This document shows, piece after piece, positions 1-36,587 of a stretch of 36,633 bases of DNA. The translations under genes and the position numbers were made by a program. The notes under the pieces were generated by a model, which did not search any database, was not told the origin of the DNA, and saw only the letters and a list, made by a program, of their open reading frames with translations. Positions within the stretch are counted from its first letter, which is position 1. The number at the start of each line of letters is the position of its first letter. Origin of the DNA: Vicinamibacteraceae bacterium (GTDB lineage: Bacteria > Acidobacteriota > Vicinamibacteria > Vicinamibacterales > JAFNAJ01); the NCBI GenBank assembly GCA_023384595.1, contig JAHDVQ010000015.1, positions 1-36,633 of the forward strand. Reading direction: 5' to 3'.

Positions 1-190
1 TAGAGCCCACAGAGCCTACAGAGCCTACGGAGCGCACGGAGCCTACGGAGCCTACGGAGCCTACGGAGGCTAACAGAGCCTACAAAGCCTACGGAGCCTA
101 CAGAGCCTACGGAGCCTACAGAGCCTACAGAGCCTACAGAGCCTACATAGCCTACATAGCCTGCAAAGCCTACGGAGCCCACCGAGCCCC
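1..190. repeat. Left array of a 9-bp tandem repeat (AGCCTACRR)
   Basis: About twenty imperfect head-to-tail copies of a 9-bp unit, AGCCTACAG or AGCCTACGG, with single-base variants (AGCGCACGG, AGCCTACAA, AGCCTACAT) and one irregular spot near 66 to 72 (GGAGGCTAACAG). The array touches the window edge, so its true left end is unknown. Read on the + strand it has the same sequence as the array at 658 to 827 read on the minus strand, so the two are inverted around the small gene at 230 to 592. No spacers alternate with the units, so it is not a CRISPR. Confidence 0.95.
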
Positions 191-229
191 TGCAGGCTTG
201 GTTAGCCCGTGGGGGCTTGGTTGACCGTG

Positions 230-592
230 TTACGGTTCGAGATATCGGATCGAGCTGTGCAGTTTGTGCAATGCCCTGACGAGGTGTTGCTGGCAGGTTC
301 TGCAGCGTCTGGTCCGATCGAAGGAGGCGAACCCCAGGTCGCAGCTGAGGTCGAGGAGGCTGCCGACTTCGACCGCCGATCCGAGGGCGATGTTGAGGAA
401 GTGTTCGTACTCGCCGCGTCCTGAGCGCCCGCAGCCTTCGGCTATGTTCGCGACCACAGAGACCGCGGAACGGCGGAGCTGCTCCCGGAGGTTGTAACGC
501 TCGGTGTCCGGCAGGTCAGCGGCGACCCGGTAGACCTCCACGGCAAGCGTCCGCGCCAGGGCATAGACTTCGAGCCTCTCCGGATTCCTCAT
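230..592 (-). CDS. Four-helix-bundle protein of the 23S rRNA intervening-sequence (S23/IVP) family
   Basis: A 120-residue protein starting at an ATG (592). It has the familiar family layout: an N-terminal stretch with LEVYALARTLAVEVYRVAADLP, the segment YNLREQLRRSAVSVVANIAEG with the family's typical R-R-A-xxS-xxxNIAEG pattern, then GEYEHFLNIALGSAVEVGSLL. Family length is about 115 to 125 residues, so it looks complete. Such proteins were first found in intervening sequences of 23S rRNA genes and resemble the Avd accessory protein of diversity-generating retroelements, but their biochemical role is not well defined. Here there is no rRNA, reverse transcriptase or variable repeat nearby. The gene instead sits between two inverted 9-bp repeat arrays, just upstream of rpsT and divergent from it. 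Only GGGGA directly against the ATG resembles a ribosome binding site. Family assignment is confident; function is unknown. Confidence 0.88.
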   Translation of the reverse strand: MRNPERLEVYALARTLAVEVYRVAADLPDTERYNLREQLRRSAVSVVANIAEGCGRSGRGEYEHFLNIALGSAVEVGSLLDLSCDLGFASFDRTRRCRTCQQHLVRALHKLHSSIRYLEP

Positions 593-657
593 TCCCCAGG
601 CGCACGCAAGCTCCGCGCCGTCCCTTCCGTTGGCCCATCGGTGACCTGTCGCCCGTC

Positions 658-827
658 ATAGCCTTTGTGGGCTTTGTAGGCTCCGTAGCCTTTGTAGCCT
701 TTGTCGCCTTGGTAGCCTTTGTAGCCCTTGTAGCCCTTGTAGCCCTTGTAGCCTTTGTAGCCTTTGTAGCCTTTGTAGGCTTTGTAGGCTTTGTAGGCTT
801 TGTGGGCTCTGTAGGCTCTGTAGGCTT
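658..827. repeat. Right array of the 9-bp repeat, inverted relative to the left array
   Basis: About nineteen imperfect copies of GCCTTTGTA, GGCTTTGTA or GCCCTTGTA. On the minus strand these read AGCCTACAA, AGCCTACAG or GGCTACAAA, matching the left array. Variants are clustered: GGCTCTGTA copies at the far right, GCCCTTGTA in the middle, GCCTTTGTA elsewhere, as expected from local unit duplication. The span 593 to 897 has no other gene. Besides this array it holds about 65 unremarkable bases next to the small gene and the rpsT promoter, whose -10 box starts 10 bases beyond the last repeat unit. Confidence 0.95.
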
Positions 828-833
828 ACTGTG

Positions 834-842
834 TGCTATACT
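834..842 (+). promoter_or_regulatory. Extended -10 promoter of rpsT (TGCTATACT)
   Basis: TGC followed by TATACT, an extended -10 element, lies 55 bases upstream of the rpsT GTG. No good TTGACA is present at the usual distance, and the -35 position falls inside the end of the 9-bp array. The same nonamer occurs upstream of yceD and of the TonB-type gene, which supports it as a real promoter motif in this genome. Confidence 0.6.
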
Positions 843-14284: not shown

Positions 14285-14361
14285 GGCGTTAGGCGTTAGG
14301 CGTTAGGCGTTAGGCGTTAGGCGTTAGGCGTTAGGCGTTGGGCGGTGGGCGTCAGGCGTTG
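14285..14361. repeat. Heptamer tandem array GGCGTTA between plsX and fabD
   Basis: Eleven contiguous 7-bp units: seven exact GGCGTTA copies (14285 to 14333), then GGCGTTG, GGCGGTG, GGCGTCA and GGCGTTG. On the coding (minus) strand the units read TAACGCC. The array fills most of the 114-base gap between plsX and fabD and ends 6 bases from the fabD ATG, leaving no normal ribosome binding site. The near-identity of the copies closest to fabD points to recent duplication. It resembles the array at 36515 to 36587 (GGCRTCC units). Confidence 0.95.
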
Positions 14362-36512: not shown

Positions 36513-36514
36513 CC

Positions 36515-36587
36515 GGCATCCGGCGTCCGGCGTCCGGACAGGCCACCGGCATCCGGCGTCCGGCATCCGGTCCGGCATCAGGCGTGC
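36515..36587. repeat. Heptamer tandem array GGCRTCC upstream of clpC
   Basis: About ten units: GGCATCC, GGCGTCC, GGCGTCC, a short GGACA, GGCCACC, GGCATCC, GGCGTCC, GGCATCC, a short GGTCC, GGCATCA and GGCGTGC. On the minus strand they read GGATGCC or GGACGCC. The array starts 2 bases beyond the TATAAT box of clpC. It shares the GGCRT core and 7-bp period with the array at 14285 to 14361. Confidence 0.9.

What the first reader, a model, noticed from the sequence alone, without database searches (positions are those of the whole stretch)
1..827. Four-helix-bundle gene framed by inverted arrays of the same 9-bp repeat
The arrays at 1 to 190 and 658 to 827 are reverse complements of one another as families (AGCCTACRR on + at left, on minus at right). 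Any transcript through the locus could fold into a stem of up to about 170 bases, with many alternative registers, with the IVP-family gene in the loop. In 23S rRNA intervening sequences, relatives of this protein also sit in a loop closed by complementary ends. The unit may therefore be a mobile or RNA-processing element that carries its own stem as a repeat array and lives outside rRNA. The geometry is seen directly; the function is inferred.
Basis: partly seen in the sequence, partly recalled or inferred. Interest (0 to 1): 0.72.

Follow-up and report, generated by a model that had tools for sequence, protein, structure and literature searches.

The report
Tiny mobile gene with hairpin-array ends
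A small gene lies between two mirror-image arrays of short repeats, and comparison with hundreds of other bacterial loci shows that gene and arrays form one small piece of DNA that inserts between genes, probably the free-living form of an insert known until now mainly from ribosomal RNA genes.

Summary
The geometry is real. A PF05635 (23S_rRNA_IVP, four-helix-bundle) gene at 230-592(-) lies between inverted 9-bp arrays at 2-188 and 659-827.

The architecture is not specific to that unit, though. In 101 IVP loci of the same phylum, 75 have matching inverted flanks; the unit is usually 7 bp and differs between loci. Within genomes, 33/53 matched flank pairs score >=35 against 1/254 mismatched pairs. 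Named genomes from many phyla give 48/69. Controls (rpsT, ParE) give 0.

Complete cyanobacterial plasmids supply clean empty sites: arrays plus gene appear or disappear together in tight intergenic gaps. One element family recurs at three or more unrelated sites, and its homology ends at the outer array edges. An internally deleted copy keeps both arrays. The arrays are therefore the element's ends.

Literature on the Coxiella 23S IVS describes the same parts: an IVP ORF, a terminal-repeat stem cut by RNase III, and tandem heptamers.

Best reading: a free-standing IVS-like mobile unit whose transcript folds into a long stem. RNA excision and the mobility mechanism are inferred. How the arms keep matching while the unit drifts is unexplained.

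The parts
2..188 (+). Left array, about 20 copies of AGCCTACRR read on the + strand; 3' arm of the unit in the sense of the IVP gene; cut at its outer end by the contig end
   Evidence: TRF; unit scan; match to the right array; contig start
230..592 (-). IVP / four-helix-bundle gene, 120 aa, PF05635 and TIGR02436
   Evidence: related to PDB 2GSC
659..827 (-). Right array, about 19 copies of AGSCTACRR read on the - strand; 5' arm of the unit in the sense of the IVP gene
837..842 (+). Neighbour, not part of the unit: -10 box TATACT of rpsT, about 10 bp beyond the outer edge of the right array
   Evidence: aligns with the same position upstream of rpsT in relatives that lack the unit, e.g. L375 and L377
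898..1173 (+). Neighbour, not part of the unit: rpsT (ribosomal protein S20)
   Evidence: PF01649

Best explanation
The locus is one copy of a small mobile insertion unit, roughly 0.42 to 0.9 kb: [short tandem array]-[four-helix-bundle IVP gene]-[inverted copy of the same array]. It is the free-standing counterpart of the intervening sequence (IVS) of 23S rRNA genes. SHOWN by comparison with other loci: arrays and gene insert and move together in intergenic or intercistronic gaps, and the arrays are the ends of the unit. SHOWN by counting: the two arms of a locus match each other in inverted orientation although the unit differs widely between loci; the arm upstream of the gene is usually G-rich; where both neighbours lie on one strand the gene is biased to the sense strand. 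INFERRED: the unit is transcribed with its neighbours and folds into a long stem with the IVP coding region in the loop; RNase III cuts the stem, as known for rRNA IVSs, so that the host transcript tolerates the insert; the IVP protein binds its own stem or the ends during mobility. INFERRED: many solitary arrays and short array hairpins are deleted derivatives. How the two arms stay matched while the unit drifts is not established; copying one arm from the other by hairpin template switching is the simplest guess.
For: Inverted locus-specific arms in 75/101 loci, 33/53 vs 1/254 within genomes, 48/69 in named genomes of many phyla, 8/10 in complete plasmids; rpsT 0/29 and ParE 0/30. Empty sites without arrays in complete plasmids: L402/L403 vs L382, L404 vs L384, L393/L394 vs L388/L395, L397/L398 vs L399/L400 and L387. 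Same element family at unrelated sites with homology ending at the outer array edges, and a 170-bp internal-deletion copy. In the window's relatives the rpsT upstream region has neither IVP nor arrays. Purifying selection on IVP, dN/dS 0.12-0.23. Polarity G>C in 64/75 and 40/48 upstream arms. Sense bias 43 vs 17 between co-directional neighbours. End-to-end RNA pairing predicted. Coxiella IVS: IVP ORF, 28-bp terminal-repeat stem cut by RNase III, tandem heptamers of variable number (PMC4990558).
Against: About a quarter of IVP loci show no clear inverted arms. Inverted array pairs without IVP exist, at one site around promoter-like sequence and with different units per species, so arrays are not strictly dependent on IVP. 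No near-identical IVP copies within the genomes sampled, at most 82%, so movement within a genome is rare or old. No G-U bias that would favour RNA pairing. In Coxiella the IVP protein is thought not to be made (PMC4990558). The window's left junction is unknown.
Confidence: 0.62

Rival explanations
1. The unit is mobile, but the arms act at the DNA level. The inverted arrays form hairpins or cruciforms in single-stranded DNA that a trans-acting enzyme (for example an IS200/REP-type tyrosine transposase) or the replication machinery recognises, and RNA folding is incidental.
For: All comparative evidence for a mobile unit holds equally. No G-U preference in either strand. The internal-deletion copy that keeps both arrays (L407) and dispersed arrays resemble non-autonomous derivatives moved in trans.
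Against: No recombinase in the unit and none sought in trans here. Polarity of the arms relative to the gene and the sense bias are not expected of a purely DNA-level end. Inserts inside operons such as nrdB/nrdA would still need to be tolerated in RNA.
Confidence: 0.22
2. IVP genes insert into the loops of pre-existing array hairpins, which are independent repeats of the host genome; the arrays are the target and not part of the element.
For: Array hairpins without IVP are found in the same genomes and at the L155-type site in related genomes; rRNA insertions lie at the top or base of stem-loops (PMC11270868).
Against: Empty sites in complete plasmids contain no arrays. One element family keeps its array unit at unrelated sites. 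Different cassettes at one site have different units in both arms.
Confidence: 0.07
3. The arrays are a host-serving RNA or transcription feature (attenuator, stability hairpin or operon coupler), with IVP as a domesticated regulator of the neighbouring genes.
For: Purifying selection on IVP. Many insertions lie inside operons: cas6/cas4, nrdB/nrdA, integrase and transfer genes. Transcript-stability and translation-coupling roles have been suggested for cyanobacterial 7-bp hairpin repeats (PMC2670836).
Against: Presence is sporadic at orthologous sites and neighbours vary widely. Neighbour function is not shared.
Confidence: 0.06
4. Ordinary intergenic microsatellite-like repeats that happen to lie on both sides of a gene.
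For: Short arrays are common in these genomes, 82 in 400 kb, and this unit is genome-wide.
Against: Matched vs mismatched flank tests, inverted vs direct orientation and gene controls; empty sites.
Confidence: 0.03

Closest known systems
Intervening sequences (IVS) of bacterial 23S rRNA genes, e.g. the Coxiella burnetii IVS in helix 45 (PMC4990558)
   Same: IVP/S23-family ORF in a loop closed by complementary ends; similar size (428 nt); tandem heptamers of variable number beside the ORF; sporadic occurrence.
   Different: Lies outside rRNA, between protein genes; the whole stem is built of tandem arrays whose unit differs between loci; RNase III excision is known for the IVS and untested here.
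Short tandemly repeated repetitive (STRR) heptamers of cyanobacteria (PMC2670836; original descriptions from own knowledge)
   Same: Intergenic arrays of mostly 7-bp units that can form hairpins, function unknown.
   Different: Here the arrays occur as inverted pairs that end a unit with an IVP gene, and in many phyla.
REPINs / REP-associated tyrosine transposases and MITEs (PMC3116915, PMC2817692 as listed; general features from own knowledge)
   Same: Small intergenic hairpin elements, with short derivatives that lack the gene.
   Different: No transposase in the unit; ends are tandem arrays of variable sequence instead of a conserved palindrome.
PF13366 (PDDEXK_3, GxxExxY) loci
   Same: Also framed by inverted short-repeat arms: 21/30 loci score >=30.
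   Different: Arms use a largely conserved unit (CCACAGAGGCACAGAG) and fewer are called tandem arrays (14/60 flanks); different protein fold.

Membership tests
PF05635 / TIGR02436 four-helix-bundle IVP family | Profile match above the curated cut-off | tested here: met
   100 bits vs cut-off 33.8; 94.4 vs 24
23S rRNA IVS | Located inside an rRNA gene | tested here: not met
   No Rfam match in the window; neighbour is rpsT; none in 60 other IVP loci
23S rRNA IVS | IVP-family ORF in a loop closed by complementary ends | tested here: met
23S rRNA IVS | Excision by RNase III | not testable with these tools
   No RNA data; only predicted pairing
Mobile insertion unit | Filled and empty alleles of the same site | tested here: met
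   For the class. For the window: relatives lack IVP and arrays upstream of rpsT, but the left junction is missing
Mobile insertion unit | Same element at unrelated sites with defined ends | tested here: met
   For the class: L399, L386, L405/L406, L407; not shown for the window's own copy
Classical insertion sequence / transposon | Encodes its own transposase or recombinase | tested here: not met
   The delimited units of about 420 bp contain only the IVP ORF
Classical insertion sequence / transposon | Target-site duplication | tested here: inconclusive
   At most one possible 5-bp TTCTA duplication; other sites show small deletions
STRR | Intergenic tandem arrays of about 7-bp units | tested here: met
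   Period 7 is the commonest in IVP flanks, 97 of 161 array-bearing flanks; the window's unit is 9 bp
REPIN / RAYT system | Cognate REP-associated tyrosine transposase in the genome | not tested
   PF01797 was not searched

The most novel reading that the evidence does not exclude
A pan-bacterial class of minimal mobile elements without any recombinase. Its ends are inverted tandem arrays whose unit drifts freely while an unknown copying process or selection keeps both arms complementary, and its only product is a four-helix bundle that guides movement through an RNA or single-stranded DNA hairpin. rRNA IVSs and many unexplained heptamer arrays (STRRs) would be its rRNA-resident and decayed members.
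Probability: 0.35. Interest if true: 0.95.

Novelty: new variant of a known kind. Interest (0 to 1): 0.84.

Why it matters
IVP genes are numerous (up to 17 found in one genome here) and have no known function. Showing that they are the cargo of small mobile units with array ends gives the family a defined context, unifies free-standing copies with rRNA IVSs, and offers an origin for short heptamer arrays scattered in bacterial genomes. It also poses a clean evolutionary puzzle: arms that stay complementary although their sequence is not conserved. Cultured cyanobacteria with complete genomes carry clean filled and empty sites, so mobility and RNA processing can be tested directly. No description of this architecture was found in the open-access library searched; subscription papers and preprints were not covered.

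Tried and rejected
(1) Array unit specific to IVP: rejected, AGSCTACRR is genome-wide. (2) Chance or intergenic background: rejected by rpsT, ParE, random-window and mismatched-flank controls. (3) Direct-orientation arrays (insertion into a tandem array): 9/101 only. (4) RNA-level selection through G-U tolerance: no signal (85 vs 88). (5) IVP landing in pre-existing hairpins: suggested by the site, then contradicted by clean empty sites. (6) Left neighbour of the window: the S4-domain gene that precedes rpsT in relatives lies elsewhere in this genome (C305), so the left junction stays unknown. (7) Phage carriage: no match in 50,697 phage records. (9) Literature searches under several names found no prior description. 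(10) Score thresholds (30 or 35) for flank comparisons were chosen after looking at the first null distribution; the within-genome and named-genome tests came after that and used the same scoring.

Full report
OBSERVATION. Two 9-bp arrays lie at 2-188 and 659-827. The left matches the reverse complement of the right with score 125, against 19 in direct orientation and a shuffle maximum of 19. Between them, 230-592 on the minus strand encodes a 120-aa protein of PF05635/TIGR02436, related to solved structure 2GSC. Both strands fold far better than shuffles. The window begins at the first base of contig C76, so the left array is truncated by the assembly.

THE UNIT VERSUS THE ARCHITECTURE. The 9-mer AGSCTACRR is spread through this genome: 295 hits to an 18-mer pattern, 0 to the reversed control. 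Only four IVP genes are present. Some inverted pairs of the same unit have no IVP inside: L037, L038 and L049. However, the other three IVP genes of this genome, and most of those in the same family of genomes, sit beside arrays of other units, mostly inverted across the gene (GGCTCCR, GTGCCCA, GATCCGCY, AGGCTGC and others). The association is therefore with an architecture, not with a sequence.

QUANTIFICATION. I compared upstream flanks with reverse-complemented downstream flanks for 101 IVP loci from about 60 genomes of the same phylum. Matched pairs have median score 39 against 19 for mismatched pairs. 75/101 exceed the 99th percentile of mismatched pairs, and 9/101 do so in direct orientation. 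Within single genomes, 33/53 matched pairs reach 35 against 1/254 mismatched. Of 80 loci from named genomes of many phyla, 69 had usable flanks, and 48 of those reach 30 against 4/207 mismatched. Controls: rpsT 0/29, ParE 0/30. Arrays occur in 115/204 IVP flanks, 2/58 rpsT flanks and 71/1580 random 250-bp windows. In 400 kb of two complete genomes, arrays are common (82) but mostly single. The only strong inverted array pair with a long loop is itself an IVP locus, apart from one coding-like GGCCACC repeat. Period 7 dominates (97 of 161 array-bearing flanks), followed by 8, 14 and 9. The score cut-offs were chosen after the first null distribution was seen.

ANATOMY. The arm upstream of the gene is G-rich in gene sense: G>C in 64/75 (p 3e-10) and 40/48 in the independent named set. 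The window's own copy does not follow this (its upstream arm has more C than G). Median distance to the gene is 57 nt upstream and 19 nt downstream. The upstream neighbour is co-directional in 66/96 cases (p 3e-4). Where both neighbours lie on one strand, IVP is sense in 43 and antisense in 17. IVP is under purifying selection in the pairs where dS could be estimated, dN/dS 0.12-0.23. Within the genomes sampled, no two IVP ORFs exceed 82% nucleotide identity.

MOBILITY. At orthologous chromosomal sites, related genomes carry different IVP cassettes, with flank homology resuming close to the outer array edges in the best cases (L155/L158, L157/L161). The cleanest evidence is in complete plasmids of cultured cyanobacteria. 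Integrase gene: empty in L402/L403, filled in L382. nrdB/nrdA: empty in L404, filled in L384. Transfer-gene site: empty in L393/L394, filled in L388/L395, and an array remnant without IVP in L396. A hypothetical-gene operon has two separate sites: empty in L397/L398, one filled in L399/L400/L401 and the other in L387. The empty sites contain no array, so arrays and gene arrive together, in gaps of a few bases to about 60 bases, with small deletions and at most one possible 5-bp duplication. One element family is found at unrelated sites (L399; L386; L405/L406), and homology between the contexts runs from the outer edge of one array to the outer edge of the other (about 420 bp, 78-82% identity) and stops there. 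L407 is a 170-bp internally deleted copy at a further site, keeping both arrays and both ends of the ORF. For the window itself, relatives L375-L380 have neither IVP nor arrays upstream of rpsT; the right array ends about 10 bp before the rpsT -10 box. The window's left junction is missing, so its own insertion is supported by one side only, and mobility of this particular copy is inferred from its class.

CONFLICTING EVIDENCE. At one site in the same order (query L155), genomes without IVP often carry inverted array pairs around a short loop, with promoter-like sequence inside and with different units per species. This can be read as decayed units or as independent array hairpins. It is why I do not claim that every array derives from an IVP unit.

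COMPARISON WITH THE KNOWN. The Coxiella burnetii 23S IVS (PMC4990558) is a 428-nt element with an IVP-family ORF, a 28-bp stem of terminal inverted repeats cut by RNase III, and tandem heptamers (GACAGAT) of variable number just upstream of the ORF. These are the parts seen here, outside rRNA: no rRNA was found at the window or at 60 IVP loci. Cyanobacterial STRRs are 7-bp intergenic hairpin-forming repeats of unknown function (PMC2670836). PF13366 (GxxExxY) genes are also framed by inverted arms, with a more uniform unit, so the architecture is not confined to IVP. In the open-access library I found no report of IVP genes framed by inverted tandem arrays.

MECHANISM. Shown: a discrete insertion unit whose ends are the arrays, carrying a conserved protein, inserted between genes. 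Predicted: transcripts pair end to end (124 pairs between the arms in the window's sense strand); in some of the seven units folded the number of end pairs is within the range of shuffles. Inferred: RNase III excision, by analogy with the rRNA IVS. Inferred: movement through an RNA or single-stranded hairpin with IVP as binding partner. Not established: what recombines the DNA, and how the arms stay complementary while drifting. The G-U test gave no support for RNA over DNA.

VERDICT. Observation confirmed. Interpretation partly supported: the mobile, IVS-like reading is supported by comparative evidence; the RNA-processing part remains inference.

Noticed in passing
L235-L264 (PF13366 loci): GxxExxY/PDDEXK_3 genes are also framed by inverted short-repeat arms, built on a largely conserved unit CCACAGAGGCACAGAG. 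A second gene family with the same architecture.
   Followed up: partly
window 14285-14360: GGCGTTA heptamer array, about 11 copies, between fabD and plsX, without an inverted partner within 1.2 kb.
   Followed up: partly
window 36513-36585: Degenerate CCGGCGT/CCGGCAT array upstream of the clpC-like gene, without an inverted partner within reach.
   Followed up: partly
L037 3134-3579 and L049 2320-2986 (own genome): Inverted AGSCTACRR arrays framing other contents: a roughly 90-aa ORF with a signal-like N-terminus, and an IS3-type transposase fragment.
   Followed up: no
L055, L056 (G003) and L114 (G303): IVP gene and an upstream divergent ORF are duplicated together over 1.1-1.4 kb at 74-81% identity, with an array on one side only; perhaps a larger composite element.
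   Followed up: no
L383 vs L392 (cas6/cas4 interval): In two plasmids with 99.4% identical flanks, one carries an IVP unit between cas6 and cas4 and the other a different inverted-repeat insert (GTAGGTTGGGTT...AACCCAACCTAC); the interval looks like an insertion hot spot.
   Followed up: partly
contigs C37, C94, C142 and C76 of G000: Several contigs of the window's assembly begin or end inside AGSCTACRR arrays, so such loci are probably under-represented in short-read genomes.
   Followed up: no
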